DNA of 57,787 nucleotides from Alistipes sp. (GTDB taxonomy: Bacteria > Bacteroidota > Bacteroidia > Bacteroidales > Rikenellaceae). Shown one piece after another: positions 11,643 through 56,008 of the stretch (positions within the stretch are counted from its first letter, which is position 1; every line of letters starts with the position of its first letter). Below the pieces are notes generated by a model. It did no database searches. It had not been told where the DNA came from and saw nothing but the letters and a program-made list of their open reading frames with translations. The stretch is taken from contig JAGAPT010000014.1 of the NCBI GenBank assembly GCA_017623115.1, positions 1 to 57,787 on the forward strand, read 5' to 3'. The translations under genes and the position numbers were made by a program.

Positions 11643-12068
11643 TCAGGCCTTTTGTTTCGTGCCGTGTGAATCCATGAAGAGCTCCCATCCTCGTTCGAGG
11701 GCTTTGCGGTTGGCCGGTTCTCCATTCTCGATGCGGGACATGGCCGCAACCATAGGTATCATCGTCGCACGGTCGCGGGTGTTAATCTCCCGACAGGGGG
11801 CAATTCCCGCTTGGCGTGCTACGGCCTGCACATAGGCTCGGGTGTGGTTCTCGGTGGGTGGAGCCCAGCGACCTATCATCTCGGCAATGGTGCGCAGGCC
11901 ATGCTTGCGTTGGTAGGTGTCGAGGGTGACGAAGATGGCCCGATAACCCCATTCGAGCGACTCGAACTGCTTGAATGCGGGGTCTTGCGAGGGCTGCACC
12001 TCGCCGCGGTAACGGGCAATCGACCGACGGATGTTGCCCGGATTGCAATTGCGAAGGCCTCTACTCAT
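11643..12068 (-). CDS. Phage lysin-like protein ('structural protein P5' type)
   Basis: A 141-residue protein starting MSRGLRNCNPGNIRRS, the hallmark of the small lysozyme-like family annotated as structural protein P5 in Bacteroides prophages. FKQFESLEWGYRAIFVTLDTY and LRTIAEMIGRWAPPTENHT follow, matching that family. It is thought to cut peptidoglycan. No signal peptide is visible, so export would depend on the holin encoded just upstream, with which it overlaps by eight bases. The start at 12068 is fixed by the RGLRNxNPGNIR motif. It is the last gene of the nine-gene phage-like operon. Confidence 0.75.
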   Translation of the reverse strand: MSRGLRNCNPGNIRRSIARYRGEVQPSQDPAFKQFESLEWGYRAIFVTLDTYQRKHGLRTIAEMIGRWAPPTENHTRAYVQAVARQAGIAPCREINTRDRATMIPMVAAMSRIENGEPANRKALERGWELFMDSHGTKQKA

Positions 12069-12486
12069 CGCCCACCTCCTTTCGGATGCGGCGACGCACA
12101 TAGCGACGTAACCAGCGGAAGAGGGGCGCATCACTCAGTTGGGCGGCATTTTCGAGGAACGACCAGAGCTCAATGCCACAGGCGAATCCGGCAAAGAGGT
12201 GTGCAATACGCAGTTGCATAAATCCAAGCACACAGGTATCAAGCAACCAGGCCATGGCCAGCGCGATGATGCAGAGGGCGGCCTTCGTGACGGTGCGTCG
12301 TGCCAGGTGGCTTTCGAAATACCAGGTGCGACCCTGCTGCCGAGCCTCATGGCGGTCGGCGGCGATACCCGAGAGGAAGTCGATGCCGATGAAGAGCAAC
12401 GTGCACCCTATGAGCGGTGCGATGGGGGCAAAGAGCCCCACGAGGGCTGTCGTAAGCCCACTAACGAATCTAAAGAAAGCCTCCAT
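12061..12486 (-). CDS. Phage holin-like membrane protein
   Basis: A 141-residue protein beginning MEAFFRFVSG. It has hydrophobic segments around residues 10-40 (LVGLFAPIAPLIGCTLLFIGIDF), 65-90 (KAALCIIALAMAWLLDTCVL) and 95-110. The IDFLSGIAADR block and the RRRIRKEVGDE positively charged tail fit the holin families of Bacteroides prophages. It overlaps the connector gene by 17 bases and the lysin gene by 8, the usual holin-lysin arrangement. The long upstream extension of the frame is rejected because it runs through the connector gene. Confidence 0.7.
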   Translation of the reverse strand: MEAFFRFVSGLTTALVGLFAPIAPLIGCTLLFIGIDFLSGIAADRHEARQQGRTWYFESHLARRTVTKAALCIIALAMAWLLDTCVLGFMQLRIAHLFAGFACGIELWSFLENAAQLSDAPLFRWLRRYVRRRIRKEVGDE

Positions 12487-12934
12487 CGATTGAGCAGCGG
12501 TAAAACAGGTTCTCATGGGCATCATATTCGGGGTATTCGGTGCGGTGTGCCTCGAGGTAGCGCACGGCACGTCGCAGGAGGGTGTTTGCCTCGGTACGCA
12601 GGTTGTGGCGCAAATAGCGACGTGTGGCCGGATCGGCGGCCGTGCCGTTATCGCTCTTTGGCGAGAGGGTGCCGAGTGCCGAGGTGCGTGTGTCGAGGCG
12701 GGGTTGGATGAAGACACGGACAAAGAGGGCCGTGCAGGTGGCGAGGTAATCTTGTCGAAACTCCTCGTAGGCTCCTTCGAGGAGGCGGTCGTGAAGTGCA
12801 TCACCGAGGATGGGGCGCAGATATCGCTCCTCGGCTGCTATGATGTCGGCCTCGGTTACGGCATCCGGAGCGATGTACTCGCCGCTGCCAAAGGCTCGTC
12901 GTACCACCTCCAGGGGTGTAATCAGGCTTTTCAT
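12470..12934 (-). CDS. Head-tail connector-like protein
   Basis: A 154-residue all-helical protein (MKSLITPLEVVRRAFGSGEYIAPDAVTEADI, then AEERYLRPILGDALHDRLLEG). This resembles DUF6712/gp6-type head-completion proteins of Bacteroidota prophages, in which a first helix bundle is followed by a helix with conserved Tyr, Leu and Pro. The start codon overlaps the portal stop (TGATG), so translation is coupled. Assignment rests on pattern and on position after the portal. Confidence 0.6.
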   Translation of the reverse strand: MKSLITPLEVVRRAFGSGEYIAPDAVTEADIIAAEERYLRPILGDALHDRLLEGAYEEFRQDYLATCTALFVRVFIQPRLDTRTSALGTLSPKSDNGTAADPATRRYLRHNLRTEANTLLRRAVRYLEAHRTEYPEYDAHENLFYRCSIDGGFL

Positions 12935-14157
12935 CAGTCAATGGCTTTGAGGTTATACTTGGTGATTTCGGAGAGGAACTGCTGTTGTCGCTCATCCTCG
13001 GGGTCGTAGTCGAGGCCATCGGCCTTGCGTGCCTCCCACACCTTCATGTAAATCGGTTTCGAGCGGGTCGGTGGGCGGTTGATAATCTCGAGTGAGGAGC
13101 AGTCGTAGCCCAACAGTTCGGTGATCAGGTCACGAATAGGCTCGGTGAGGTCGGCCTGCTCGGCCAGAATGACCGTGTTGAGGGCTATCTCATACTCCTG
13201 TAAGATGCGCTCGGAGTTGAACCCCGAACTATAATCCAATCCGCTCAGGGTGCGGAACCAGGAGTGTGCTACGACGATATCCGATACGGCCTGCTCGTGG
13301 AGCGTATGCCAATCCCCCTCGTTTTGAGCCGAGATGGGGATGAAGCGTGAATGGTCCTCCTCCAGGCCGTCGCGCAGGACAAAGAGCACCTGCCCGGGAG
13401 TTCCGGCAAACTTCTCCTCGGCCATGCGCACAATGCGCTCGGCATCGGCCTCGTTGTCGATACTCGAATCGAGCATCATGACCCCCGAGAGTTGAAACGA
13501 GTGGTCGAGGCGCGAGATGTTCCATCGGTCGGTTTTGTAGGCGATGGCCGATACGTTGAGACCTGCGATGTAGGCCGGTACGCCATAGTGTTCGAACATC
13601 GGTTCGTAATCCTTGTAGTGGATGCAGGTGCGCAGCGTGCCGTCAGCCTGCTCCTCATAGCGGGGGTAGAGGGGTAGCGAACGAGCCTCCGAGGGCTTGA
13701 ACCGACTCCAATCGTGGTGGAGCAGGATGTGCTGCGAGTCGCGGGCCACACGACAGCGGGAGGCATCCTGATGGTAGAGGGCCAAAAAGGTGTGCTGGGG
13801 GTCGGTTACCACCTCGAGGAAGGCATTCCCGAAGAGCGATTTGTCGAAGGCGAGTTTGCTGATGACCTGTCGCAACGATTCTCCCTGCCCATTGACGCAC
13901 CGCAGGTAGGCCGAGAGCCCCGGGTCGGCATGTTCGTCGCAGGAGAAGCCCTTTCCGGCGATGTAGTCGGCCTTGTCGTTGATGATACGTCGATGGGTAG
14001 TCGAGCGACGAGCCATGAGCGAGAGGGCTTGCGGAAAGAGGTTGTCGTCGCCCCAACGCCAGAAATGGGCATTCTCGACCGTCGCAGCCCCCAGCTGATA
14101 GGGATCGACATAGTTGGAGGCGAGGGTTGCCGTATGTATTTTTCGTTGTTTTTCCAT
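12934..14157 (-). CDS. Phage portal protein
   Basis: A 407-residue protein with the features of siphovirus-type portals: WRWGDDNLFPQALSLMARRSTTHRRIINDKADYIAGKGF at the start (conserved early helix and clip-facing loop), LAFDKSLFGNAFLEVV, the HHDWSRFKP loop, IYKDYE-like wing residues and a C-terminal helix near LTEPIRDLITELLGY. Portals form the dodecameric vertex through which DNA enters and leaves a capsid. It lies 67 bases after the capsid candidate. A portal in an operon without a terminase is odd; see findings. Confidence 0.75.
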   Translation of the reverse strand: MEKQRKIHTATLASNYVDPYQLGAATVENAHFWRWGDDNLFPQALSLMARRSTTHRRIINDKADYIAGKGFSCDEHADPGLSAYLRCVNGQGESLRQVISKLAFDKSLFGNAFLEVVTDPQHTFLALYHQDASRCRVARDSQHILLHHDWSRFKPSEARSLPLYPRYEEQADGTLRTCIHYKDYEPMFEHYGVPAYIAGLNVSAIAYKTDRWNISRLDHSFQLSGVMMLDSSIDNEADAERIVRMAEEKFAGTPGQVLFVLRDGLEEDHSRFIPISAQNEGDWHTLHEQAVSDIVVAHSWFRTLSGLDYSSGFNSERILQEYEIALNTVILAEQADLTEPIRDLITELLGYDCSSLEIINRPPTRSKPIYMKVWEARKADGLDYDPEDERQQQFLSEITKYNLKAID

Positions 14158-14224
14158 GCGATAAAGGGAGTTAAGGGGGAGGAGGCCTCACGCGCATCGG
14201 GGCGTGAGACCTCCTCGCTACGGG

Positions 14225-15202
14225 TTATTGACGGTAGGCGTAGGTGAGCATATCCTCATCGAGGATTTCGCATCCGGCCATGAAGACGGCACGCTGGCGA
14301 TTCTCCATCTCGTCGGGGTTGTACCACATGCGCACCTCGTTGCCGGGCATGTCGGCCGTATTGACGGCCAAGACGAGGTTGCGACGATCGGTGAGCAGGG
14401 CAAACGACTGGTGGAGGGAGGTCAACGGGAGGTAATTGCTCAGGCGCACATCGACAATCGGAATGCCGTGATACATCAACTCACGACGACCCTCGACCAT
14501 GCCGACATACGAGGCCTCGATACCCATCGAGTCGAGGTAACGCTCGTAGAGCTGGTAGATATCCGAGGTGACGAAGTAGGCGAGTTGCCCCTCATGCTTG
14601 GTGTCTTGCAGACGAGGCGATGAGTACTCCCACATCGTGTCGAAGAGCGTGATGACATAACTCGGGTCCTTCAGATCCTCGGCCGTGAAGGAGAGGTGGT
14701 TGATGCACTCATCCTCGGTGTAGTCGTGCAGATGCTTGAGGAATCCGTTGAAGGTGTTGTATTCGAGATTGGACGAGGTGTCGCCAATCCACATCGTGGT
14801 ACGGAGATTCTCGGCAATGGCCTGCTTGAAGAGGGTCGTCTCGGCCTCTTCGAGAATCGTGCCACTCAAATCCTCGAAATTGACATCGGGACGAGCCGAA
14901 ATCTGCTCGTAGACGAGCGAGAAGTAGTCGGCAGCCGAGAAGGAGGACTCGGCCTTCACGCGGTGCATGTCGATGGTCTTCTGGTATTTTGCCGATTTCA
15001 TGCTGCCCTTCCAGCCTCCCTCGGTGTACTTGCGCAAGACGTTGCGGAAGCCATCCCAGATTTGTACGGTGGTCGGGGTGGGCATGTTGTAGAGAATGCG
15101 GATACCCAGGTTCTCGGCTGCTGCGCCGGTCAGCATCGGGCGGAAGAAAATCTGTTCAACATCGTTACCGGTGTACTGTTTTGCTGTTTCCAAATAAGCC
15201 AT
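14225..15202 (-). CDS. Candidate major capsid protein
   Basis: A 325-residue protein with no signal peptide. It carries no motif I can name with certainty. Its length, mixed alpha/beta composition, position between the prohead protease and the portal, and its own leader with a separate start (56 bases after the protease) are what an HK97-type capsid protein would show. The N-terminal FFRPMLTGAAAENLGIRILYNMPTPTTVQIWDGF and the C-terminal MWYNPDEMENRQRAVFMAGCEI look like the arm and the final P-domain strands. A structure comparison would be needed to settle it. Confidence 0.6.
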   Translation of the reverse strand: MAYLETAKQYTGNDVEQIFFRPMLTGAAAENLGIRILYNMPTPTTVQIWDGFRNVLRKYTEGGWKGSMKSAKYQKTIDMHRVKAESSFSAADYFSLVYEQISARPDVNFEDLSGTILEEAETTLFKQAIAENLRTTMWIGDTSSNLEYNTFNGFLKHLHDYTEDECINHLSFTAEDLKDPSYVITLFDTMWEYSSPRLQDTKHEGQLAYFVTSDIYQLYERYLDSMGIEASYVGMVEGRRELMYHGIPIVDVRLSNYLPLTSLHQSFALLTDRRNLVLAVNTADMPGNEVRMWYNPDEMENRQRAVFMAGCEILDEDMLTYAYRQ

Positions 15203-15258
15203 AAGTGTGGTTGTGTTTTAGTTGATTGATAAGAATAAAAGGTGTTTGAAGGTCTGTG

Positions 15259-16161
15259 TTAGCGGATGCGGAAGCGTTTGGCATCTTCGGCATAGGCGCG
15301 ATCGTTGGCCGAGTGCATCGGCTCGTGGTGTGAGGGGTCCTCGGTCGGAAGCGTGCGTGTCGGGGCAATTTGTCGCAGAGCGGCAGCCGTGGCGGCTGTC
15401 GAGCGACGACGCAACATGCGCTCCTCGTGGCCGAAATGCAGGATGTTGCGATCCTCGGGCAGGGGCTGCGGTGCAGGCTCTCGGTTCAGGCCGATGGCCT
15501 TCATCAGGCGATGCCATCCACTGTTTTCGGTCGTGGTCTCGGCCGGCGGCGTCGGTGCCGTGCTTTCATCGCTGCCGATGATGCGGTCGGCCAATCCGGC
15601 TGCCAGGGCCTCATCGGGTGAGAGCCAGCGGCCATTGCCGTTGTTCTCGGCCATCAAGGTGCGGAACTCCTCGATTGCACGCCCCGAGCGGGAGGCGTAG
15701 AGCGATGCCAATCGTTGGTCGGTCGCCTCCAGCAATGCGAGTTGTTCGGCCAACTGGGCGGCGTTGCCTTCGGTCGCACAGGTTGCCTGATGAATCAGGT
15801 AGAGGGCGTTGGCCGAGATTTCGCGACACCCCTCCGAGGCGGCTTGCGCGATGATGGTAGCCGCCGAGGCGGTGTAGCCATAGCAGCGGGTAGTGATGTG
15901 TCCGTCGATTTGTCGCAGGGCATCGTGAATCAGGAGGGCATCGTTTACATCGCCACCCGTCGAGCGGATGGTGACGATGACCTCGGGTGCCTCGATTTCG
16001 GCAATGCGGGCAACCGCCTCCCGGAAGCGTTCGTAGGTCGCCACGCGACTTTCGGGCTCTTCGAACTGCCACTCCTCGGGGACACCGATGGTTCCCTCGA
16101 TTTCGATGTAGCAGGCGTCAGCCTCATTGTTGATGCAGATGTGTGGTCTCATGCGTGTCAT
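15259..16161 (-). CDS. ClpP-like prohead protease
   Basis: A 300-residue serine protease of the ClpP/S14-S49 type used in phage head maturation. STGGDVNDALLIHDALR, CYGYTASAATIIAQAASEG (nucleophile Ser in TASAAT), LYLIHQATCATEGNAAQL (catalytic His) and LSPDEALAAGLADRI (Asp region) are in the expected order. The C-terminal 90 residues are Pro/Arg-rich and may act as a scaffold. The ATG at 16161 overlaps the stop of the upstream gene (ATGA). It would cleave the capsid protein encoded next. Confidence 0.82.
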   Translation of the reverse strand: MTRMRPHICINNEADACYIEIEGTIGVPEEWQFEEPESRVATYERFREAVARIAEIEAPEVIVTIRSTGGDVNDALLIHDALRQIDGHITTRCYGYTASAATIIAQAASEGCREISANALYLIHQATCATEGNAAQLAEQLALLEATDQRLASLYASRSGRAIEEFRTLMAENNGNGRWLSPDEALAAGLADRIIGSDESTAPTPPAETTTENSGWHRLMKAIGLNREPAPQPLPEDRNILHFGHEERMLRRRSTAATAAALRQIAPTRTLPTEDPSHHEPMHSANDRAYAEDAKRFRIR

Positions 16162-16424
16162 TTGTTCGTTTTTTGGTAATAGATTTGGCGGGCTTTCTCG
16201 TAGGAGCAACAGAAGTGCTCGGCAGCCCAGGTGATGGCATCCGACGTGCGGGCTCCTTCTCGGATCAGGGCGCGGATGTGTTGTCGGATGGCCTGTGCCT
16301 CCACCGCTCGTCGGTCGATGAACCCTTGCTCAAAGAGTCTCCCCAGCCACTCTTTGGGCGGAAGTCCGGCCAATACCGCTGCCACGGTGTCGCAGAGTTG
16401 GCGGTCGTGTCGATTCAGTGTCAT
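16158..16424 (-). CDS. Small helical protein of the phage-like operon
   Basis: An 88-residue protein, mostly helical. The C-terminal half (ARTSDAITWAAEHFCCSYEK) could be a helix-turn-helix. It overlaps both neighbours by four bases (ATGA on each side), so it is translated with them. Possibilities are a small-terminase-like DNA binder or a scaffold; I see nothing decisive. Confidence 0.6.
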   Translation of the reverse strand: MTLNRHDRQLCDTVAAVLAGLPPKEWLGRLFEQGFIDRRAVEAQAIRQHIRALIREGARTSDAITWAAEHFCCSYEKARQIYYQKTNK

Positions 16425-18781
16425 CGGTCGTGTCGGTTGAAGGTGCAACGTACGCTGCCTTGTGCGGGGTCATACGCCTCGATGCGGTGAATGGTTCCCC
16501 AGCACTCGCCCAGCGAGGTCATGAGCCGGAAGGTGGAGTGTAGCGAGGGGGCTTCGGACTCGGGATGTTGCAGCGACTCCCACTCATGGGGCTTCAACCG
16601 CAACGTGAGGCTTATGCGACCTCCCTGCTCCTCGTGTCGCAGGTTGCGGTCGTAGAAGCGATGCAATCCCTGCTGCCCATCCCGATTCTCGAAGCAGAGT
16701 GTCCACCCCTCCATCGCCTCATCCCCTGCAAAGTGGAAGGCCGCCAGCGGATAGAGCCCCTCGTTGGAGGGCCATCCCCACTGCTCCCCTGCGGCCAGGG
16801 GGTGTTCTCCTCGATAGATGACGATGCGTGGGGCAAAGGGCTCGCCCTCCTCCTCGAGGGCATCACGGTCGCCCAGTTGCAGCATCCATGCCGAGGGGGC
16901 ATTGTTGTAGTGCCCCTGGGAGAGCACCGAAGGGGTGAAGAGCGGGCTGCGCAGAACCGCCTCGCCCTCAAGTGCTGCATCGCTGTCGGTGGAGCGGCTC
17001 CAACTCCCCAGCGTGGTTTTCGCTTCGCTCTCGAAGCGACGCACGGCTCCATCGCCCTCCTGATAGCACCAGGTGCGCACCTCGTGTAACGCAGGCGTCA
17101 GGTCGGTCAGTTCGGTCGGCTCCGACAGGTCGACCTTGTCGCGCCAATCAAACTCCCACTCATCGCCATAGAAGTCATCGTAGGGATCGACCCATACCGT
17201 GCGTGTCTGCTCCTCGGTGTGGAAACGCAGGTTGAAGAGGTGGGACAAGGCCTTGAGCAGCTCGATTTGCCGTATCCGATGGTGTGCCACATCTTGAAAG
17301 GTGAGCGTAGAGCCATACCCGGGCGAGGCGAGAAAGCGGGGGCGAATGGAGCACTCCTTGTGGAGGGTCAGTCGCTGCCCCTCGTTTGCACCGAAGAAGT
17401 AGATCGTGTCGAAGTGTTTGGGTGAGGCGGGCGATAACCGCTCGGAAGCGGTGCAGACCCGCACCTCGACGGTCGTCTCCCCCTCCTCCTCGATGTAGCC
17501 GTCGTAGAGTGCCCAATCCCCCGTGTAGGGCACCCAGTTGCCGTCGCTCTGGATTTCAAGCGTAGGTGCGGAGGGTGCTCCCGTGCTCGGTGTTGTGACG
17601 AGTGCCGAACGCGAGGCAAACTCACTCCACAATGTGCCACTCACCCCATTGAGGGTATATCGCAGCCGATAGCGTGCTCCGTCGAGGTGGTCGAAGACGA
17701 TGACACGATACTGATAACCCGCCGAAAGGTTGTCGCGTCGATCGGTGTAGCGATTCGCCAGCTGAAAACGCATCTCACTTCCCGGCCCGAGGTAGAGCGA
17801 GTCGAACCCCGTCAGCCGCTGACGCGAGAGGATGCGGTGTTCGGTTGTGTATTTCAGGTAGTATTCGAATCCGACACTGACTTCGGTGGTGGGCGTAAAG
17901 CAGATGGCGCCCTTGCTATCCAGGGTGAAACAACCGCCGTTGTTGTAGAGGTCGGGAACGGTGTTACCCTCCTCGTCGATGCTTTGCGGTGAGGCCGATT
18001 CGACCAGGTTACCCACCGTAGCAACGGTTGTGAAGGGGTTGGCGTAGACGCGACCCATCCAATTGGCGGTGGACGAGACCGTGGTCAGGCGACGTGCCAG
18101 GAAGCCCATGCGAGCCATGGCTGCTGTGGTGTCGCTCGAAGAGTAGGCTCCACTCATGTAGAGCGAGCGGAAAAACGCACTTTCGAAGAACCGACTGCGG
18201 AGCGTGTAGCCCGACTCGGCAAAGATCTGCTCGACGAGCGTAGCGATGTGCAGGAAGGGGTGGTAGTCATCCACCGAGAGCATCCGCAGGTTGGGTTGCA
18301 GGTCGAGCGAGCTGTTTTGCTGCGGATATTGGTCGCGATGGATGGGGAAGAAGCGCACGGGGGTCTCCTCGGTCCAACTGCGGTGGATGGTGGTCGGGGT
18401 GAGCGACTCGTTGTACGCCACCCCCAGCGAGTTGAACATACGCAGGGAGGCCTGCCGTGCCCACCCGGCCCCCGCCTCGCGCAATTCGACGGTGTACCCT
18501 GCATCGGAGGCTGCAAGGAGGCGGATTGCCCCCTCCATGAGGATCGCGCCGTCGGCTGTCAGCGTTGCCGGGTGGTGCGAGGTGTTGAAGCGGGTGGCAC
18601 GCTCGGGGTCGCGCTCGAATCCGAAGAGCAGGTCGTTGCGAGGCGTGATGGGGAGTGTTAGCGTGAGTCTGCGTCCGTTGCGAGCCGCCTCGGGGTCAGC
18701 CCACGTCGAGGTGTCAAAGCCCGGTACTTTGAGCGGGGTGATAGGGAGGTCGCAGGGGGTGTTGTTGATGGTTAACTCCAT
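16421..18781 (-). CDS. Large tail/baseplate-like protein of the phage-like operon
   Basis: A 786-residue protein rich in beta strands, with no signal peptide or membrane segment. It begins MELTINNTPCDLPITPLKVPGF, as do large tail-associated proteins of Bacteroidota prophages. Beyond that I recognise no domain. A middle part (about 330-470) looks like a galactose-binding or carbohydrate-binding sandwich (FEYYLKYTTEHRILSRQRL, YRVIVFDHLDGARYRLRY). It could be a baseplate hub or wedge. It overlaps the preceding gene by ten bases and the next by four. Confidence 0.55.
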   Translation of the reverse strand: MELTINNTPCDLPITPLKVPGFDTSTWADPEAARNGRRLTLTLPITPRNDLLFGFERDPERATRFNTSHHPATLTADGAILMEGAIRLLAASDAGYTVELREAGAGWARQASLRMFNSLGVAYNESLTPTTIHRSWTEETPVRFFPIHRDQYPQQNSSLDLQPNLRMLSVDDYHPFLHIATLVEQIFAESGYTLRSRFFESAFFRSLYMSGAYSSSDTTAAMARMGFLARRLTTVSSTANWMGRVYANPFTTVATVGNLVESASPQSIDEEGNTVPDLYNNGGCFTLDSKGAICFTPTTEVSVGFEYYLKYTTEHRILSRQRLTGFDSLYLGPGSEMRFQLANRYTDRRDNLSAGYQYRVIVFDHLDGARYRLRYTLNGVSGTLWSEFASRSALVTTPSTGAPSAPTLEIQSDGNWVPYTGDWALYDGYIEEEGETTVEVRVCTASERLSPASPKHFDTIYFFGANEGQRLTLHKECSIRPRFLASPGYGSTLTFQDVAHHRIRQIELLKALSHLFNLRFHTEEQTRTVWVDPYDDFYGDEWEFDWRDKVDLSEPTELTDLTPALHEVRTWCYQEGDGAVRRFESEAKTTLGSWSRSTDSDAALEGEAVLRSPLFTPSVLSQGHYNNAPSAWMLQLGDRDALEEEGEPFAPRIVIYRGEHPLAAGEQWGWPSNEGLYPLAAFHFAGDEAMEGWTLCFENRDGQQGLHRFYDRNLRHEEQGGRISLTLRLKPHEWESLQHPESEAPSLHSTFRLMTSLGECWGTIHRIEAYDPAQGSVRCTFNRHDR

Positions 18782-19734
18782 AGCAGGTCATTTTTCAGCG
18801 TGGAACGAATCTCAATGGCGAGCATGCGCAGCGTGCCATGGCGATGCATTTCGGCTCGCTCGGTCAGTAGGTCTACGGGGTGGTAACCGGCCGCTGTTGC
18901 CATCCAGAGTTGCTCGGCCGAGAGCAGGTCGCCGAGGGCCCGCATCATCGCCTCACACTCGTAGGCCGAGTGCAGGGTAAGCCGCTCCTCGCTTTGCTCG
19001 ACATGGCCCTTCCACCCCTCCCGGCTATAACTGCGTTGGCGGTTGACGACGCGTTCGACCCGTTGTACGAGGGGGAAGGTGTAGTGCTCGATGGCTCCTG
19101 ACCGGCTCAACCAGGCGAGTCGTACAGCACCCTCGGGGCGGGGTAGGAGGGCGTAGTGGAGCGTGCCGCAGGGGCCTAAATCGAGCGTCAGCTGCTCGGC
19201 CGTGGGGAAGTCGTCGGCTGCCACGGCAAACACCACGCATCCTGTGTCGGGGGTTGGATAGCGGTGTTCGGTGCGCCGACCGGCCGGGTCGATAGCCGTA
19301 ACGACAATCTGAATGGGCTGCTCAAGCCGCAAGGTCAGAAAATCGGACTCCGAGGGTGCCAGCAGTCGCTCTGTGGGCAGGGCGGTGAGCAGTGATGGAG
19401 TAATTGTCGGTTGGGCGGAGGGGAGGAAGGTGCGGAGGTCGGAGCGGAGTTGCTCGGTGTCGGCCACCGCCTCGACATAGACCGTGAGGCTGTGGTCCGA
19501 GGGGTCGATGAAGCCGGTGTGTGCGGGCTGGGGATGCAGGTGGAGCACGGCACGCAGGTAGGGGGCGATGTCGCATGTGACTGTGCTTTGGCCAAGAAAG
19601 CGTTTTGTGCCGAGCAACTGCCCGTCGGCAGTGTAGATGCGCAGATCGAGCACGTTGGCCGTAGCGCCTGTGAGGGTGTAGCGAAGCGGAGCCCCGATGG
19701 GGGCAAAGGCCTCGGGAATGGAGGAGAAATACAT
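18772..19734 (-). CDS. First protein of the phage-like operon (tail-like, unknown)
   Basis: A 320-residue protein starting MYFSSIPEAFAPIGAPLRYT. The N-terminal part has a beta-sandwich pattern (NVLDLRIYTADGQLLGTKRF, CDIAPYLRAVL) and the C-terminal part is helical with EGWKGHVEQSEERLTLHSAYECEAMMRALGDLL. Bacteroidota tail or fibre-attachment proteins look like this, but the match is by impression only. The upstream extension of the frame (39 residues, Arg/Pro-rich) lies in the leader and is not counted. A TATATTTG promoter box is at 19970-19977. Confidence 0.5.
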   Translation of the reverse strand: MYFSSIPEAFAPIGAPLRYTLTGATANVLDLRIYTADGQLLGTKRFLGQSTVTCDIAPYLRAVLHLHPQPAHTGFIDPSDHSLTVYVEAVADTEQLRSDLRTFLPSAQPTITPSLLTALPTERLLAPSESDFLTLRLEQPIQIVVTAIDPAGRRTEHRYPTPDTGCVVFAVAADDFPTAEQLTLDLGPCGTLHYALLPRPEGAVRLAWLSRSGAIEHYTFPLVQRVERVVNRQRSYSREGWKGHVEQSEERLTLHSAYECEAMMRALGDLLSAEQLWMATAAGYHPVDLLTERAEMHRHGTLRMLAIEIRSTLKNDLLWS

Positions 19735-20053
19735 AGAAGAAGAGCGTTGAGTGGAGCGCATGCAGCCCGAAAGAGGCCCATGGAGGGGAGAAGATCCGTC
19801 GCGAGGAAGAAAAAAAAGCGACGGAGGGAAGCGCATGCGCCCGATGGTCAATAATGTGTTGATGCGTTGTTGAAAGTTGTGGATAACTTTCTTTAGAATA
19901 CTGTTTTACAGCGCATTGTAGATTGTTGATAAGTTGCCGAACGGCTCCTTATGTGGTCGAATCGCAGGACAAATATACAACCCCGAATACCCCCTTGTCA
20001 AGAGGTTTTTGCACTTTTTCTAAATTTTATGGAAAATTTTTCCGATTTTTGTG
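19735..20053 (-). other. Intergenic region and leader of the phage-like operon
   Basis: The minus-strand leader of about 225 bases contains CCGTCGC/GCGACGG (hairpin, about 19795-19823), a perfect DnaA-box 9-mer TTATCCACA (19878-19886, minus strand) and a near match TTATCAACA (19924-19932). No reading frame here looks coding. Confidence 0.5.
19970..19977 (-). promoter_or_regulatory. -7 box of the phage-like operon
   Basis: TATATTTG on the minus strand, with TTG about 21 bases upstream. Leader to the first start is about 230 bases. Confidence 0.6.
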
Positions 20054-37959: not shown

Positions 37960-39015
37960 ATGCAATACCTCGCCACGGCCTTGCTGGCCATCATGACCAT
38001 CGCGCTTGTGTCATGCGGTGCGCTTCTGTGGAAGCACCGCAAGGAGACCAACGACCTCTCGCGCACGATTCAGGCGGTACTCAGTTGGCTGTCGGCGTTT
38101 TTCACCCTGACCTTTATTTTCCGCACCTGGGCCGAGACAACCACGGTCGATGGGGCGTTCTTCGAGCCCGAGCACACCTTCGTGCCCCTGCTCATGCAGA
38201 TGAGCTTCTTCCTCTACCCGCTGGAGGTGATGCGCCCCACGATCAGCCGCCCGAAGGTCTATGCGCTCCTCTTCTCGCCCCTGCTTTTGTTGATCTGCGT
38301 CGGCATGTGTGGCGGAATCGACTACACGCCGATCCATACCTATGCCGACCTTTGGGCGCATATTGGCGAGTTCAATGTCTGGTTTCGGTTGTTTGCCCTC
38401 ACCGTGATGCTGTTCTACTGCTTCGCCCTCTTCCTCGTGCCCTACGATTGGCAGCGAAGCAGTGCCGACCGCAGCTTCATCATGCGCTACGCTTCGGGCT
38501 TCTGCCTCATCGGGCTGCTGCACTTCGCCATACAGATGACCCATGCCCACTTTCTGGTGTTGGCGCATCAGGGGGTGTGGGGTGCCTTCTTCGTCTCGGT
38601 GGCCTATTATGAGTTGAAGGAGCGTCTTCTGGCGCCCGACACGACGAGTGCGACCGAGCCCCTTGCCGAGGAGCAGCCGATGGAGGACGCCTTGTGGCAG
38701 AAGATCAAGCAGGTGATCGAGGGCGGCGAGGGTTGGCGCACGCCCGACCTCACGCTGGCCACGCTTGCGCAGCAGGTCTTCTCGAACCGCACCTATGTCG
38801 GCGAGGCGTTCAAGCGCAACACAGGGCTGACCTTTGGCGAGTATATCGCCAAGCGGCGCATCGACTATGTGGTCGAGGCGTTGCGGAGCGACCCGCTGAG
38901 CGACATCAAGGAGCTCTTCCACTATGTCGGTTTTCGTTCGCGCACGACCGCGTGGGCCAATTTCCGCAAGGTGACGGGCCTCTCGCCCACCGATTTTTTG
39001 AATAAAATCGCGTAA
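37960..39015 (+). CDS. Membrane-anchored AraC-family transcription regulator
   Basis: A 351-residue protein. Residues about 1-225 have six or seven hydrophobic helices (TALLAIMTIALVSCGALLW, VLSWLSAFFTLTFIF, LLFSPLLLLICVGMC, LFALTVMLFYCFALFLV and others). The C-terminal 95 residues are an AraC HTH pair: LTLATLAQQVFSNRTYVGEAFKRNTGLTFGEYIAKRRID, then IKELFHYVGFRSRTTAWANFRKVTGLSPTDF. Regulators of this build in Bacteroidota sense something in or at the membrane. It lies 167 bases before the two lipoprotein genes on the same strand and may control them. Its GC content is much higher than theirs. Confidence 0.85.
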   Translation: MQYLATALLAIMTIALVSCGALLWKHRKETNDLSRTIQAVLSWLSAFFTLTFIFRTWAETTTVDGAFFEPEHTFVPLLMQMSFFLYPLEVMRPTISRPKVYALLFSPLLLLICVGMCGGIDYTPIHTYADLWAHIGEFNVWFRLFALTVMLFYCFALFLVPYDWQRSSADRSFIMRYASGFCLIGLLHFAIQMTHAHFLVLAHQGVWGAFFVSVAYYELKERLLAPDTTSATEPLAEEQPMEDALWQKIKQVIEGGEGWRTPDLTLATLAQQVFSNRTYVGEAFKRNTGLTFGEYIAKRRIDYVVEALRSDPLSDIKELFHYVGFRSRTTAWANFRKVTGLSPTDFLNKIA

Positions 39016-39040
39016 ATCAGCCGCTTAATACCTGATTGCT

Positions 39041-39076
39041 GCGTTCTGTACGAAATGTGCAGGACGCTTTTTTTTT
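39041..39076 (+). terminator. Terminator of the AraC-type gene
   Basis: GCGTTCTG pairs with CAGGACGC, followed by nine Ts. Confidence 0.75.
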
Positions 39077-39132
39077 GTAAATCGGGAACGCTCTTTTTGT
39101 AGATTCCGAACAGCTTTGTAGATGCGGCGTGC

Positions 39133-39140
39133 TACTTTTG
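39133..39140 (+). promoter_or_regulatory. -7 box of the lipoprotein pair
   Basis: TACTTTTG followed by C, 42 bases before the start at 39183. Confidence 0.6.
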
Positions 39141-39182
39141 CGAATCATTTGAAATTAAGATAACAATTAAAACATAGCAATT

Positions 39183-41138
39183 ATGAAAACATTTAGACTT
39201 ATTATAGTAGCATTAATGGCTGCAATGCTTTGCAGTTTAGGTGCTTGCACAAATGATGAGCTGGAGAGAGACCCTCAGGATGATGATGCTGACGAACAAA
39301 TCTACACACCGCAAACACAAGACGACGTCGTAAAGACTCGAGTTGCGGGTAAGACGTTGTTCTTTATGGGCGGACACAGCCATCTGGACTCATTCTTGGC
39401 AAAGCGTTTTGATAACATAACTACATCGTATGATGACGATGTACAACTGGTGTTGCTCAACGAGTCGAAGGCAGCCGAGGTTATGGCAGACGAGGAGCTG
39501 TATGGCAAGATTCGCAGTTATTGGTTGCAGAATAAGACGATTGGTTTTGTAAAGCCAGCAGAGAAAGCTATTGCCCTGATACACTCACTGAAGAGTGCGG
39601 GCTCGCAGCTTAACGCATCGCCAAGTATTTCAGAGCACCATAAGCAATATATGGAAGACCTACTCCTCTTTGTTACAAATGCCAACAACAAGAGTCTGGC
39701 ATATCATTCGTTCGACAACAAAGATAGAACGCATAAGAACAGTAACGTGATCATCGATAGCGAGACTGGCGATAGCGATAGCAATGAGAACTCTGTAAAT
39801 ATTCCCATCAAACCAAACGATTACTCTTGGGGGCAGGTTGCTGAGACATTATGTGCTTGGTTCAACAAGCAGCAGGCGAACAAATCTACGTTGCTTGCAA
39901 ATATGACGCATACACGCAGTGCAAGTGATTTGGAGCCAACCAAACAGGAGCTAACCCACGGCGAGTTAATAGCTCTCCCATTGGACTATCTCAACCAATT
40001 TGATGACCACTATCCTCGAGATCTTGAACCAGTACAGACCACAGCCATTCTCACGATAGAAATACTGGGAGGTTTTAACGATAATAGCGGGGAGTTGTGT
40101 GATGTTTACGATGTGGTTGTAACAAGTGAGATTCCCGCACAAGAGACCTTCGCTTTCGTAGATTGCACATTTAAGAAAAGTGCTCTGTATCGCTACAAAG
40201 CCACAGGTTTTGGCTATTTAGGCCCAACAGCGACATATAAACTCGTGCATGAAGATGGCTCTAACATAACATTACCAACAAGCGTTCACGAGATGTCCCC
40301 AATCGTTGAAGGTGGCACCGTTAAAACTACGCATACCCCAGGCAAGTTGACTTTTGGCGGAGAGATAAGCACTAAAGGTGGCGGCGCCGCAAGTTTCTCT
40401 ATGAAATACACCCTTCCATCAACCTCCACAACAATCTCTACCGCGGACAACCCATTCGATTTCTCGAAGGAGGGTTCAACCGGTGCAAGTTGGACATATC
40501 GCAAAGGTGCATACGACTATTACAAACACACTTGGGGCTTCAATGGTAAATATCTTGATACAGCACCGGATATTACCAAGACATACGCATCTTACACACA
40601 GGCTCTAACATTCAAGGTAGATAATGCAAGAGATTTGGGTACGCAGAACCTTGCTCTCTATCTTGATGTGGACTACTCGTTCTATGCGGAGGCTTGCTCC
40701 CCTTGGAAGGTCAATAAACATACGCAGCAGGTTGATATTGCAGCTGCCTCTGTGGTGTTAGACCCCGTTAGCAGATACTTTGAGAAGTACACTCCGAGTC
40801 AATACTACTCCGATTCCTATGCCGATTCGTCGGCGTGGTCCAACTTGCAGGCTATGTTGCAGGGCAATGTGAACTACAAACACTTCTGCAATGAAGATTT
40901 GCGTGTCTGCGCTCGCCTTGAAGCGGAGTTGATACCGAATGCCGAAGCTGTATGGAGTGAGGCTATCAAGAGCCTTGTCGCACAATACAACGGCAACCCT
41001 GTCGGACACGAGTACATCGTCGGTCTTGCCGATTCAAATGGTGCTTGGCTCAAATCGGGACTCCATATCAAAGATGGCGTGTGGAGATTTGTTGAGGATA
41101 TAGAGGCTCTGCGCAATGAAATTAACGCTGCGGAGTAG
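39183..41138 (+). CDS. Large lipoprotein of unknown function
   Basis: A 651-residue protein with a lipoprotein signal (lipobox LGAC, Cys at residue 22) and an acidic stretch after it (TNDELERDPQDDDADEQ), pointing to surface display. I recognise no domain. The first half is mixed alpha/beta. From about residue 390 a Gly/Ser-rich alternating segment (GGEISTKGGGAASFSMKYTL) resembles the amphipathic strands of beta-pore-forming proteins, and beta-rich sequence follows (YLDVDYSFYAEACSPWKV). A toxin-like role is only a guess. Codon use is visibly more AT-rich than in most neighbours, suggesting recent arrival. It is followed after 12 bases by the DUF3089 gene. Confidence 0.7.
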   Translation: MKTFRLIIVALMAAMLCSLGACTNDELERDPQDDDADEQIYTPQTQDDVVKTRVAGKTLFFMGGHSHLDSFLAKRFDNITTSYDDDVQLVLLNESKAAEVMADEELYGKIRSYWLQNKTIGFVKPAEKAIALIHSLKSAGSQLNASPSISEHHKQYMEDLLLFVTNANNKSLAYHSFDNKDRTHKNSNVIIDSETGDSDSNENSVNIPIKPNDYSWGQVAETLCAWFNKQQANKSTLLANMTHTRSASDLEPTKQELTHGELIALPLDYLNQFDDHYPRDLEPVQTTAILTIEILGGFNDNSGELCDVYDVVVTSEIPAQETFAFVDCTFKKSALYRYKATGFGYLGPTATYKLVHEDGSNITLPTSVHEMSPIVEGGTVKTTHTPGKLTFGGEISTKGGGAASFSMKYTLPSTSTTISTADNPFDFSKEGSTGASWTYRKGAYDYYKHTWGFNGKYLDTAPDITKTYASYTQALTFKVDNARDLGTQNLALYLDVDYSFYAEACSPWKVNKHTQQVDIAAASVVLDPVSRYFEKYTPSQYYSDSYADSSAWSNLQAMLQGNVNYKHFCNEDLRVCARLEAELIPNAEAVWSEAIKSLVAQYNGNPVGHEYIVGLADSNGAWLKSGLHIKDGVWRFVEDIEALRNEINAAE

Positions 41139-41150
41139 AAAAAGGGATAT

Positions 41151-42152
41151 ATGAAACATTTTAGATATTCCGTTTTGGGTTTAGTGGGTGTTGCACTATG
41201 CCTTTGTGGTTGCGAGAACAAGAGTAATAGCGGTAACGAACAACCATACGAAATAGACTATGTCAATGCGAATAATTGGTTGAAAATTCCTGCGGTGGAG
41301 CAGGCGGTGGATGTATTCTACCTCTATCCCACCTGCTGGGAGCCTACCGAGACAGATGGGCTGGTAAACACCATTGACAACGCCTCAATGCGTGCGAAAG
41401 CCCCCGGCGTATATGCCGAGCAGGCCTCTTGCTTTGAGGGCGTGGCGAATGTCTTTGCGCCATATTACCGCCAACTCAACGCTATGAAGTCGTTGAACTA
41501 CTCGTTGGAGGAGCAGGAGCAGTTGGTGGCCGATGTGCCTTACCACGATGCGTTGGCGGCATTTGAATACTATATGAAACATTACAACAATGGTCGTCCG
41601 TTTATCTTGGCGGGACACTCGCAAGGCTCCAATGTGATTAAGTTCCTCTTGTCGGACTATATGGCGAAGCATCCCGAAGTGTATAGCCGTATGATTGCCG
41701 CCTATCCGCTGGGATACTCCTATGCCAAGGAGTACTTCGCGAAGTACACCCACTTGAAGTTTGCCGAGGGGGAGACCGATACGAAGGTGGTCGTCTCGTG
41801 GAATTGTGAGCGTATGGAGGATGGCAAGTTCGGCTCCTACAACCTTGTGTGCCACGAAGGGGCATTGTCAATCAACCCGGTATCGTGGAAGCACGATTAT
41901 GAAAAGGTAGAGGCCGACGACCCGCGCCACTTGGGAGCCTTAAACACTCGTGAGCGATATTCCACCCAAGTAATGTACGACCCTGCCCGAAAATACGAAG
42001 TGCTGATTGTTGGTATGCCGGAACAGCCAGCCGACGAACAAGGCATCGGCGAGTATGCATTGCACGGTAGCGACTACAAGTTGTACTACTACAACATCCG
42101 CGAGAACGCGAAGAGACGAATTGAGAGTTATTTAAATAAACGAGATAACTAA
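41151..42152 (+). CDS. DUF3089 alpha/beta-hydrolase lipoprotein
   Basis: A 333-residue lipoprotein (lipobox LCGC) of the DUF3089 family, an alpha/beta hydrolase. VDVFYLYPTCW opens the fold and LAGHSQGSNVIKFLL carries the nucleophile elbow GHSQG. EYALHGSDYKLYYYNIRENAKRRIESYL is near the end, where the catalytic His is expected. Substrate unknown; esterase or lipase activity is likely. It forms a two-gene unit with the preceding lipoprotein, and its GC is intermediate. Confidence 0.83.
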   Translation: MKHFRYSVLGLVGVALCLCGCENKSNSGNEQPYEIDYVNANNWLKIPAVEQAVDVFYLYPTCWEPTETDGLVNTIDNASMRAKAPGVYAEQASCFEGVANVFAPYYRQLNAMKSLNYSLEEQEQLVADVPYHDALAAFEYYMKHYNNGRPFILAGHSQGSNVIKFLLSDYMAKHPEVYSRMIAAYPLGYSYAKEYFAKYTHLKFAEGETDTKVVVSWNCERMEDGKFGSYNLVCHEGALSINPVSWKHDYEKVEADDPRHLGALNTRERYSTQVMYDPARKYEVLIVGMPEQPADEQGIGEYALHGSDYKLYYYNIRENAKRRIESYLNKRDN

Positions 42153-42436
42153 CACTGAAAATAGATTAGTTACAATAAGTAAATAAGAGGTGTGTCGTTT
42201 TGGACTATCCTCTTTGGGAAAAGTACAGTGGCAACATTTGTAACACTCGACACATCAACACGATACACAAATAAAAGTGAAACGATTTTGCAAACAAAAC
42301 CGTTTATTGCTTTTCTGAACAGAAATTCAGGTAAAAACCGAAGACAAAAGCAGAGTCGAGAATCATCAAGGGCAAAAGAGAGATATATTAACTAAAAATT
42401 TCGTATCTTTACCCGACTAAAAACCGAAACTGAACG
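42153..42436. other. Intergenic region before the CvpA gene
   Basis: AT-rich stretch. A box TATCTTTA at about 42403-42410 fits the CvpA gene promoter. A 67-codon frame at 42192-42395 looks like random sequence and is not annotated. Confidence 0.5.
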
Positions 42437-42955
42437 ATGAATATCCTCGATTTGATCATCTGCCTTGTGCTGGCTTTGGCGGTTTGGAATGGCTGGCGAC
42501 GTGGTTTTATCCTGCAAATATGCTCGTTGGCAGCACTCATTGTGGCCTTGTGGCTGGCGGCTCGTTTTGCCTCCGAGGTGGGGGCGATGCTCCACGTCGA
42601 GGAGGCTTATGCCCAATCGGCAGGCTTTGTCGTGGTGTTGGTGGCTGCGCTTATCGTCTTGGCCTTGGCAGCACGCCTCCTGCGCAAAATCTTTCACTTT
42701 GCCGGTTTCGGCATCCTCGATACGTTGCTCGGTATTTTGGTCGCTGCCGTGAAGTATCTGCTCGTGTTGAGTGTCGTGTTTGTCGCCCTCGACCGTATCA
42801 ATGTCGACCACGCGCTCGTTCCGGCCGAGACCATCTCCTCGTCGCGCGGCTACAAACCCGTGCGCGACTTTTCGAGCCACCTGCTCCCCTTTGTCGGGTG
42901 GGTTGGCGAGCAGGTCGATGAATTACAAAACAGCCCTCGCGAGGAAAAAATCTGA
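42437..42955 (+). CDS. CvpA-family membrane protein
   Basis: A 172-residue protein with the CvpA start (MNILDLIICLVLALAVWNGWRRGFILQ) and four hydrophobic segments (16-40, 62-85, 100-120). CvpA proteins support envelope integrity. The protein ends QVDELQNSPREEKI. It lies six bases before rsgA and is probably co-transcribed with it. Confidence 0.87.
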   Translation: MNILDLIICLVLALAVWNGWRRGFILQICSLAALIVALWLAARFASEVGAMLHVEEAYAQSAGFVVVLVAALIVLALAARLLRKIFHFAGFGILDTLLGILVAAVKYLLVLSVVFVALDRINVDHALVPAETISSSRGYKPVRDFSSHLLPFVGWVGEQVDELQNSPREEKI

Positions 42956-42961
42956 TAGCGC

Positions 42962-43882
42962 ATGGAACAGCAATTTTCGGGTATCGTGGTGCGAGCCACG
43001 GGCAGTTGGTACGAGGTGCTTGCCGCGGGGCAACGCCTGGAGTGCCGTATTCGTGGCCGTTTGCGCCTGAAAGGGGTGCGCTCGACCAATCCGGTCGTGG
43101 TGGGCGACCTCGTTCATGGCGTGACCGACGAGCAGGGCAACCACCTGATTGTCGACATCGAGCCTCGTCGCAACTATGTTATCCGCCGTGCCTCGAACCT
43201 CTCGAAGGAGTCGCATATCATAGCGGCCAACATCGACCATGCACTGTTGCTCGTGACGCTGCGACAGCCCGAAACGGCCTTGGAGTTCGTCGACCGCTTT
43301 TTGGTTACCTGTGAGGCCTATAAGATTCCGGTGACCATCCTCCTCTCGAAGGCCGATCTGCAAGCGGCCGAGGCGATTGCCGCCTTCCGTGCCATCTACG
43401 AACCGATTGGCTATCGGGTCGTGACCGTTTCGACCGAGACGGGCGAGGGGGTTGATGTGGTGCGGGAGCTGTTGCATGGGGCTACGACCCTCCTTTCGGG
43501 TAACTCGGGAGTCGGAAAATCGACCCTCGTGCGTGCCATCGACCCGACGCTCGACATCCGCACGGGCGATATCTCCGAGAGCCACCACAAGGGCCGCCAT
43601 ACGACCACCTTCTCGACGATGTATCCGTTGCGGGATGGCGGTTTTGTGATTGATACCCCGGGTATTAAGGGGTTTGGTCTGCTCGATATCGACAACGATG
43701 AGCTGTGGCACTACTTCCCCGAGATGATGCACTTCGGGCAGGCGTGCCGATTCTATAATTGCACCCATATCCACGAACCCGGATGTGCCGTAGTCGCAGC
43801 GATTGAGGCGGGAGAGATTGCCGAGCAACGCTACGAGAGTTACCTGAAAATGATGGACGACGATGACAAATATCGCAAATAA
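42962..43882 (+). CDS. rsgA: Ribosome small-subunit biogenesis GTPase RsgA
   Basis: A 306-residue circularly permuted GTPase. An N-terminal OB fold (residues 1-70) is followed by the G4 motif in TILLSKADL, G1 GNSGVGKSTLV, G3 DTPGIKGFG, and the zinc knuckle CRFYNCTHIHEPGC. RsgA checks late maturation of the 30S subunit. It overlaps the downstream methyltransferase by 20 bases. Confidence 0.94.
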   Translation: MEQQFSGIVVRATGSWYEVLAAGQRLECRIRGRLRLKGVRSTNPVVVGDLVHGVTDEQGNHLIVDIEPRRNYVIRRASNLSKESHIIAANIDHALLLVTLRQPETALEFVDRFLVTCEAYKIPVTILLSKADLQAAEAIAAFRAIYEPIGYRVVTVSTETGEGVDVVRELLHGATTLLSGNSGVGKSTLVRAIDPTLDIRTGDISESHHKGRHTTTFSTMYPLRDGGFVIDTPGIKGFGLLDIDNDELWHYFPEMMHFGQACRFYNCTHIHEPGCAVVAAIEAGEIAEQRYESYLKMMDDDDKYRK

Positions 43883-51975: not shown

Positions 51976-52000
51976 CGCTTCAAAATCCTTTTTTCAAGGA

Positions 52001-52008
52001 CAAAGGTA
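52001..52008 (-). promoter_or_regulatory. -7 box of surE
   Basis: TACCTTTG on the minus strand, 26 bases upstream. Confidence 0.6.
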
Positions 52009-52070
52009 CAATCTTTTTCGAAATGGATTCACTGCCGAGGTGAAAAAATAGAACGATTACTCCACAAAGA

Positions 52071-52111
52071 AACCGAAGCGTGAACGGCTGTAACCCCCGC
52101 ACGCTTCGGTT
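52071..52111 (-). terminator. Terminator of the Big_2/vWA lipoprotein gene
   Basis: AACCGAAGCGTG pairs with CACGCTTCGGTT; on the minus strand a T-rich tract follows. Confidence 0.7.
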
Positions 52112-52146
52112 TGCAAGATGTTCGTAACTTGTTTTTACGAATTAAA

Positions 52147-55560: not shown

Positions 55561-55577
55561 GACTGTGAATTTAAGGA

Positions 55578-55700
55578 TTACCACTCTTCGTCACCGGTGC
55601 CTTCAGAACCACCATCTCCGGGGCTTTTGGCAAATCCTTGTTCCACCATTATTTCCAATGTAAGAAATTCAGGGGTTTCATAGTAAACTTTTGTCTTCAT
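55578..55700 (-). CDS. 40-residue peptide encoded before the surface lipoprotein
   Basis: Reading on the minus strand from the ATG at 55700, the product runs MKTKVYYETPEFLTLEIMVE and continues with QGFAKSPGDGGSEGTGDEEW. It has no signal peptide. The second half is Gly/Asp/Glu-rich and ends in Trp. From memory, short peptides with a similar EQGFA core and acidic Gly-rich tail precede fimbrillin-like genes in Bacteroidales, but I cannot verify that here. It lies 17 bases before the lipoprotein start, so the two are probably co-transcribed. A role in secretion, as a signal or as an anchor is open. Confidence 0.65.
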   Translation of the reverse strand: MKTKVYYETPEFLTLEIMVEQGFAKSPGDGGSEGTGDEEW

Positions 55701-55780
55701 ACACAAAGATTAGTTGTACTATCCGCACCTCGATAGTGGTTTGCTATAAAACAGAAAGCGTGGTGCTGAAAACTTATTTA

Positions 55781-55912
55781 GTTAAGTAGGTCGTAGGAAA
55801 CCTTGACAATAAAACAAGCAACAGCCCCACGCCTATACCCCATTGCAGGGTACGACGTGAGAAGAGGTCGGCCTATTCCTTTGTCAATCTGAATTTCCTA
55901 CGTTCACTTAAC
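55781..55912 (-). ncRNA. Structured leader element of the peptide/lipoprotein operon
   Basis: Three nested helices form one long stem: 55781-55787 with 55906-55912 (7 bp), 55792-55800 with 55894-55902 (9 bp), 55803-55809 with 55881-55887 (7 bp). A smaller hairpin (55836-55840/55848-55852) is in the loop. It lies between a TAACTTTG box at 55956-55963 and the peptide start, so it would be transcribed. It could be a regulatory RNA domain or a small palindromic mobile element. Confidence 0.6.
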
Positions 55913-55955
55913 AGGAATAAACTTACACTTTCCGCGTAAAATCAGTATGTTGCCA

Positions 55956-55963
55956 CAAAGTTA
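55956..55963 (-). promoter_or_regulatory. -7 box of the peptide/lipoprotein operon
   Basis: TAACTTTG on the minus strand. The implied leader is about 250 bases. Confidence 0.5.
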
Positions 55964-56008
55964 GCAAACTATTTTCGGAAAGTGGTACTCTTGGCCGCTC
56001 TTTTTTCT

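What the first reader, a model, noticed from the sequence alone, without database searches (positions are those of the whole stretch)
11643..19734. Compact virion-like operon with capsid, protease, portal and lysis genes but no packaging motor
Seen: nine minus-strand genes, most overlapping by 1-17 bases, with one promoter and a terminator behind them. Present are a ClpP-like prohead protease, a capsid candidate, a portal, a connector, two large tail-like proteins, holin and lysin. Absent are large terminase, integrase, tape measure, repressor and replication genes. The gene order (tail-like first, then head, then lysis) is unlike standard phage order, and base composition resembles the host. 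No flanking direct repeats were seen. This fits a domesticated particle (gene-transfer-agent-like or other) or a partial prophage kept by selection.
Basis: partly seen in the sequence, partly recalled or inferred. Interest (0 to 1): 0.82.

Follow-up and report, generated by a model that had tools for sequence, protein, structure and literature searches.

The report
Domesticated phage particle of gut Alistipes
Most sampled members of one family of gut bacteria keep, as an inherited single-copy gene set, the parts of a virus particle together with a separately encoded DNA-packaging motor, which suggests a host-owned particle for moving DNA that has not yet been shown to be made.

Summary
The operon is real, but the packaging motor is not missing: it lies elsewhere in the genome. 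The capsid gene is found in 181 of 200 sampled genomes of the window's family (Rikenellaceae), nearly always once, and in 105 of 109 near-complete ones. In an order-wide sample 4 of 295 match, three of them this family. A large terminase with ATPase and nuclease motifs is as widespread (179 of 200; 105 of 109), co-occurs with the capsid (Fisher p 5e-11) and usually sits beside a CI/LexA-type repressor (17 of 22 loci). In one Tidjanibacter genome terminase, repressor and operon share one 15-kb locus. The nine genes have dN/dS 0.09-0.36. The gene order is that of a phage lineage with a tape measure between g8 and g7; in the family that gene is a C-terminal stub or undetected, and two further tail-like genes are absent together in 50 of 77 loci. 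Best reading: a gene-transfer-agent-like element, reduced towards a tail-less or stub-tailed particle, in a phylum for which seven literature searches listed no described GTA. DNA packaging and transfer are inferred, not shown.

The parts
19970..20001 (-). operon promoter TTGACAAGGGGGTA-N10-TATATTTG
   Evidence: 11 of 12 consensus positions; one match per genome in 9 of 9 chosen genomes with 0-3 mismatches, reversed-pattern control 0
19878..19932 (-). leader with two TTAT-A/C-ACA boxes (DnaA-box-like, name recalled)
   Evidence: two such boxes also in L034-L037 and L049
18772..19734 (-). g9, probable tail-associated protein, function unknown
   Evidence: no family; C-terminus matches the gene upstream of g8 in phage L201 (4.7e-5)
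16421..18781 (-). g8, tail-tip/baseplate-hub-like protein
   Evidence: phage L201 homologue 1e-34
16158..16424 (-). g7, small conserved protein, function unknown (start chosen by me within ORF 16158-16448)
   Evidence: phage L201 homologue 3.5e-9
15259..16161 (-). g6, ClpP-like head-maturation protease with C-terminal extension (start chosen by me within ORF 15259-16209)
   Evidence: phrog_94 5e-38, PF00574 3e-26
14225..15202 (-). g5, major capsid protein
   Evidence: HK97-like fold; 181 of 200 family genomes
12934..14157 (-). g4, portal protein
   Evidence: phrog_11226 3e-21; dN/dS 0.094
12470..12934 (-). g3, DUF6712 protein, probable head-tail connector (role inferred)
   Evidence: PF20459 6e-11
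12061..12486 (-). g2, holin (start inferred from relatives)
   Evidence: PF05105 5e-9
11643..12068 (-). g1, endolysin (start inferred from relatives)
   Evidence: phrog_873 2e-48

Best explanation
The window holds the structural half of a domesticated phage particle of the Rikenellaceae that works like a gene transfer agent. A tailed phage was captured as one locus (terminase and repressor beside a structural operon). In most lineages the terminase, its repressor and a small partner gene now lie away from the structural operon, and integration, replication and full tape-measure genes are not seen at either locus. Proposed mechanism: a dedicated promoter turns on capsid, protease, portal, connector, tail hub, holin and lysin. 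Separately, relief of the S24 repressor (probably self-cleavage on DNA damage) turns on the terminase, which fills heads with host DNA; holin and lysin release the particles. Shown: gene content, spread, selection, co-inheritance, ancestral linkage in one genus, phage-lineage order, intact motor motifs, two distinct promoters. Inferred: that particles are made, hold host DNA and deliver it.
For: Capsid in 181 of 200 family genomes, terminase in 179 of 200, 105 of 109 near-complete each; co-occurrence 173 both, 13 neither, 8 capsid only, 6 terminase only; distance correlation portal-terminase r 0.82, n 14; terminase motifs kept in 22 of 23; all parts within 15 kb in L204; dN/dS 0.094-0.362; unique conserved promoters; small partner ORF found only in this family, 2 of 119 order genomes.
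Against: No particle, packaged DNA or transfer is shown. G046 and G115 keep the terminase without capsid or portal (one search had no positive control). The portal frame is interrupted in L052 and L117, 2 of 93 loci. No operator is shared by the two loci. No small terminase was identified. The low-carbon signature of known GTAs is mixed here. A faecal VLP study puts 23 of 25 GTA-like events in Gram-positive families (PMC12946183).
Confidence: 0.63

Rival explanations
1. A domesticated particle that packages host DNA but serves to lyse or kill related cells (PBSX-like) rather than to transfer genes.
For: Holin and lysin and a conserved tail hub are kept. PBSX is described as packaging 13.4-kb host DNA without injecting it (PMC12946183, passages).
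Against: Tail-like genes TU and TT are absent in 50 of 77 scorable loci and no full tape measure was found in the loci read, which does not favour a killing tail.
Confidence: 0.15
2. A cryptic prophage remnant in slow decay.
For: Tail genes lost; portal frame interrupted in 2 of 93 loci; structural operon missing in two near-complete genomes that keep the terminase.
Against: Capsid frame open in 94 of 94 loci; dN/dS far below 1 in all nine genes; near-universal in the family; conserved promoter.
Confidence: 0.07
3. Host-kept helper or satellite-like element that packages another mobile element.
For: Terminase and structural genes are regulated apart, so cargo choice could be separate.
Against: Single copy and family-wide rather than patchy; no integrase among the nine genes. 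No client element was searched for.
Confidence: 0.07
4. A protein-filled shell (encapsulin-like nanocompartment).
For: Encapsulins share the HK97 fold and appear in the same fold list.
Against: Portal is the gene with the lowest dN/dS, terminase is co-inherited, and protease and lysis genes are kept.
Confidence: 0.05

Closest known systems
FpGTA of Faecalibacterium (PMC12946183)
   Same: Gut commensal, structural and packaging genes in two operons (about 125 kb apart in one strain), holin and endolysin, near-ubiquitous in its genus, about 40-nm heads without identifiable tails (section 9 read).
   Different: Another phylum; there the terminase sits with portal and capsid, here it sits apart with an S24 repressor. 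Particles and packaged DNA are shown there, not here. Sequence relatedness was not tested.
Alphaproteobacterial GTAs (RcGTA, CcGTA)
   Same: Vertically inherited single-copy head genes, dispersed loci, purifying selection (general features recalled, partly in PMC12946183 passages).
   Different: Here no complete tail, no identified small terminase, different host phylum; sequence relatedness not tested.
Phage contig IMGVR_UViG_3300017991_000226 (L201/L203)
   Same: Same order g9-g8-(tape measure)-g7-protease-capsid-TU-portal; homologous g8, g7, capsid, TU, portal.
   Different: Has a 1010-aa tape measure and a linked, distant terminase (27% identity); its protease does not match the family's profile.
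Bacteroides phages B40-8 / B124-14 group
   Same: Best-ranked phage terminases, 44-48% identity over 97% in the 20 rows listed.
   Different: None of them was among the three phage records matched by this portal at E<=1e-3.

Membership tests
Gene transfer agent | Phage-derived head, portal and terminase genes | tested here: met
Gene transfer agent | Stable vertical inheritance in a host clade, single copy | tested here: met
Gene transfer agent | Genes under purifying selection | tested here: met
   (rows with stop codons dropped before)
Gene transfer agent | No integration or replication genes with the particle genes | tested here: met
   nine operon genes and seven flanking genes; whole genome not searched for an integrase
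Gene transfer agent | Particles hold mainly random host DNA | not testable with these tools
   needs particle sequencing
Gene transfer agent | DNA is delivered to recipient cells | not testable with these tools
   needs a transfer assay
Active or recent prophage | Patchy presence, integrase, linked terminase | tested here: not met
   terminase on another contig in the window's genome
Tailocin | Tail without head genes | tested here: not met
   capsid, portal and terminase kept
Capsid-forming satellite (cf-PICI) | Mobile element with integrase and linked packaging genes | tested here: not met
   definition recalled
Encapsulin | Shell protein without portal and terminase | tested here: not met
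   definition recalled

The most novel reading that the evidence does not exclude
A gene transfer agent of the Bacteroidota, of independent origin and family-wide, caught evolving from a tailed to a tail-less or stub-tailed DNA carrier: the tape measure shrinks to a C-terminal stub and then vanishes, the tail-like genes TU and TT go together, and what remains is head, portal, connector and hub, with the terminase under its own LexA-type switch.
Probability: 0.4. Interest if true: 0.92.

Novelty: new variant of a known kind. Interest (0 to 1): 0.84.

Why it matters
Alistipes and its kin are common gut bacteria. A family-wide, host-owned DNA-packaging particle there would add a route of gene exchange that none of the papers listed in seven searches describes for this phylum (the library lacks most subscription papers and all bioRxiv preprints). 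The family also holds intermediate stages (linked and unlinked terminase; tape-measure stub and none; tail-like genes present and absent), so the stepwise conversion of a phage into a cellular device can be followed and tested.

Tried and rejected
Rejected: 'no packaging motor'. Rejected: gene order as a sign of domestication. Rejected: a terminator behind the operon. PF03354-type terminases are patchy (4 of 24 genomes) and were not taken as part of the element.

Led nowhere or mixed: a shared operator of the two loci (none found); low-carbon bias of GTA proteins (family mean below all 6 phage-like proteases and 7 of 8 phage-like portals, the eighth equal, but not below most capsids; confounded by GC); PDB sequence profiles for g8, portal and TU (no match); families for TT and TU (nothing convincing). 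TU as tail tube and TT as tail terminator are guesses from position; TU could be a head decoration protein. The TU profile was built with phage copies in it, so only the single-sequence match (E 5e-6) is independent; E-values are for a very small set of ORFs. The stub profile did not match the tape measure of phage L201; its link to tape measures rests. The TU/TT co-loss has only two well-supported independent pairs and cannot reach significance. One search carries no positive control. Rows with stop codons were dropped before dN/dS; the holin value (4 pairs) also includes an out-of-frame N-terminal stretch and is unreliable. Two scaffolds from human faecal samples deposited as phage (MT838736, MT838805) carry the genes but may be bacterial DNA, so they are not counted as evidence of packaging.

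Full report
What is in the window. Nine minus-strand ORFs run from 19734 to 11643. Profile searches name a ClpP-type head-maturation protease, a portal, a DUF6712 protein, a holin and an endolysin. The capsid candidate has only a weak family match (phrog_1623, 1e-7), but its predicted structure (best model pLDDT 78, the other four 55-64) matches phage capsids of the HK97 fold first among 346 PDB chains at E<=1e-3. The 786-aa g8 is predicted with high confidence (pLDDT 88.9). Its best PDB match is the lambda tail tip (5.7e-5, low TM-score), with Mu-type hub proteins weaker, and it has 129 viral models at E<=1e-3, best 1e-37. g9 and g7 match no family. Six of seven flanking genes have host matches: an iron-type alcohol dehydrogenase, pdxA, a D-threonate-kinase-like gene, corA, rplS, cydB.

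How common it is. The window lies in a 2.19-Mb, 60-contig genome. Titles of named relatives show the family to be Rikenellaceae. A capsid match occurs in 181 of 200 sampled family genomes, 105 of 109 near-complete ones and 17 of 22 genera; 4 of the 181 have two matches, the rest one, and no listed match has a stop inside. In an order-wide sample 4 of 295 match: three of this family and one (G342) with a 93-residue fragment from another. In a collection of 84,980 species 227 stretches encode a relative; the 80 kept are titled Alistipes, Rikenellaceae, Tidjanibacter or Bacteroidales. In 20 relatives protease, capsid, portal and g3 keep their order in 20, g9-g8 in 19 (the twentieth is cut by its contig); g7 was detected in 15, holin in 13, lysin in 9.

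The missing motor. A Terminase_6N search matched 23 of 24 chosen family genomes, 21 of them exactly once. In the window's genome it is a 467-aa protein at G000:C8:9051-10454, phrog_38 at 7e-84. Orthologues occur in 179 of 200 family genomes, 105 of 109 near-complete. Walker A, Walker B and the first nuclease motif are kept in 22 of 23 aligned proteins; the 23rd is an ORF I picked wrongly, and that genome (G020) does have the orthologue. Capsid and terminase co-occur: 173 genomes both, 13 neither, 8 capsid only, 6 terminase only (Fisher p 5e-11; thresholds 1e-5 and 1e-60; one genome without a terminase match is not printed and is G111 by elimination). Part of the absences may be assembly gaps. 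Four genera in the sample (g2, g10, g12, g22; 8 genomes) lack both. Distances agree between portal and terminase (r 0.82) and capsid and terminase (r 0.72) in 14 genomes. Against this, G046 (99% complete) and G115 (94%) have terminase but no capsid and no portal match (without a positive control).

The terminase neighbourhood. Of 22 terminase loci, 17 have an orthologous HTH-S24 repressor (69% identity or more), three a different HTH-S24 match (31-39%), two none; 18 have the small 95-aa-type ORF. The repressor's Ser and Lys and an Ala-Gly site are kept in all 17; their role in self-cleavage is recalled from LexA/CI proteins. The 95-aa protein was found in 2 of 119 order genomes, both of this family. 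A palindromic footprint overlaps the divergent promoter; at up to 3 mismatches it occurs once, there, in 8 of 10 chosen genomes and not at all in two.

One ancestral locus. In G037 the terminase is about 4 kb upstream of the operon on the same strand with other genes between. Elsewhere on shared contigs the distance ranges from tens of kilobases to about 2 Mb. So the element was probably one piece and was split later.

Where the order comes from. The portal profile finds distant phage contigs. One, L201/L203 (part of a 37.5-kb record), runs terminase - several genes - g9-like - g8 - tape measure - g7 - protease - capsid - TU - portal. Profiles of the family's proteins match it at E 1e-34 (g8), 3.5e-9 (g7), 5e-5 (g9 C-terminus), 4e-41 (capsid) and 5e-84 (portal); protease and TT do not match.

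Loss of the tail. In that phage a 1010-aa tape measure (phrog_991, 8e-56) lies between g8 and g7. In the window those two genes overlap. Ten distinct family loci (14 hits with duplicates) have a short ORF of 59-255 codons between stops, placed between g8 and the protease and ending in a YV[LV]ES[DE]I-type sequence (which also shows the two places lacking neighbours in that run). The same motif ends proteins of 194-1006 aa in 13 phage loci read out of 17 found; of 7 scanned, 5 match tape-measure families. So these are probably tape-measure stubs. Two further genes, TT upstream of g9 and TU between capsid and portal, are present together in 23 of 77 scorable loci, absent together in 50 (the window among them), TT alone in 1, TU unscored in 3; 17 of 94 loci could not be scored. 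The tree needs 5 changes for TU and 4 for TT, with too few well-supported independent pairs for a test.

Selection. In up to 14 independent close pairs pooled dN/dS is 0.094 portal, 0.187 capsid, 0.190 protease, 0.200 g7, 0.200 lysin, 0.202 g3, 0.232 g8, 0.343 g9 and 0.362 holin (4 pairs, unreliable); the host control corA is 0.041. In 94 non-duplicate loci the capsid has no stop in its match (94 of 94), g3 none (91 of 91); the portal is interrupted well inside in L052 and L117 (2 of 93, with a third stop near an end in L122); stops in the other genes' matches lie mostly near the ends or before the true start (lists cut at 14 for holin and lysin).

Regulation. The promoter TTGACAAGGGGGTA-N10-TATATTTG recurs once per genome in 9 of 9 chosen genomes, all of the window's genus, with 0-3 mismatches and no match of the reversed pattern. 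It differs from the repressor footprint, so the structural and packaging halves appear to have separate switches; the signal for the first is unknown.

Interpretation. These facts fit a gene-transfer-agent-like element better than a prophage, satellite or protein shell. The closest worked example I know is FpGTA of Faecalibacterium (PMC12946183, section 9 and passages). That study places 23 of 25 GTA-like events in three Gram-positive families, so Rikenellaceae packaging, if it occurs, was not prominent in its three donors. A 2024 survey reports that in some Alistipes species prophages are in nearly all strains but almost all incomplete (PMC10841027, passages); this element may be among them. 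Seven literature searches listed no paper whose title or abstract start describes a GTA in this phylum. Packaging of host DNA and its transfer remain to be shown.

Noticed in passing
L214 and L215 (MT838736, MT838805): Two unannotated records deposited as 'Bacteriophage sp.' from human faecal samples carry TT-g9-g8-g7-protease-capsid-portal and portal-g3-lysin of this element; either packaged or contaminating bacterial DNA.
   Followed up: partly
L033 (G342) and L142: A genome of another family of the order and a 14.8-kb viral contig carry a protease and capsid of the same type (capsid 50% over a fragment and 42%), so the element or its phage kin may reach beyond Rikenellaceae.
   Followed up: partly
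19878-19932: Two DnaA-box-like sequences in the conserved leader between promoter and g9; such boxes recur in L034-L037 and L049.
   Followed up: no
L038:3236-4136: In G022 a GC-rich stretch with recurring motifs lies between the conserved promoter and g9, which are about 1.6 kb apart there.
   Followed up: no
L179, L180, L182: Genome G087 has three further Terminase_6N matches besides the conserved one, probably from prophages.
   Followed up: no
window 39000-43000 and 52000-56000: Two stretches of lower GC (about 0.44-0.49) than the rest of the window; content not examined.
   Followed up: no
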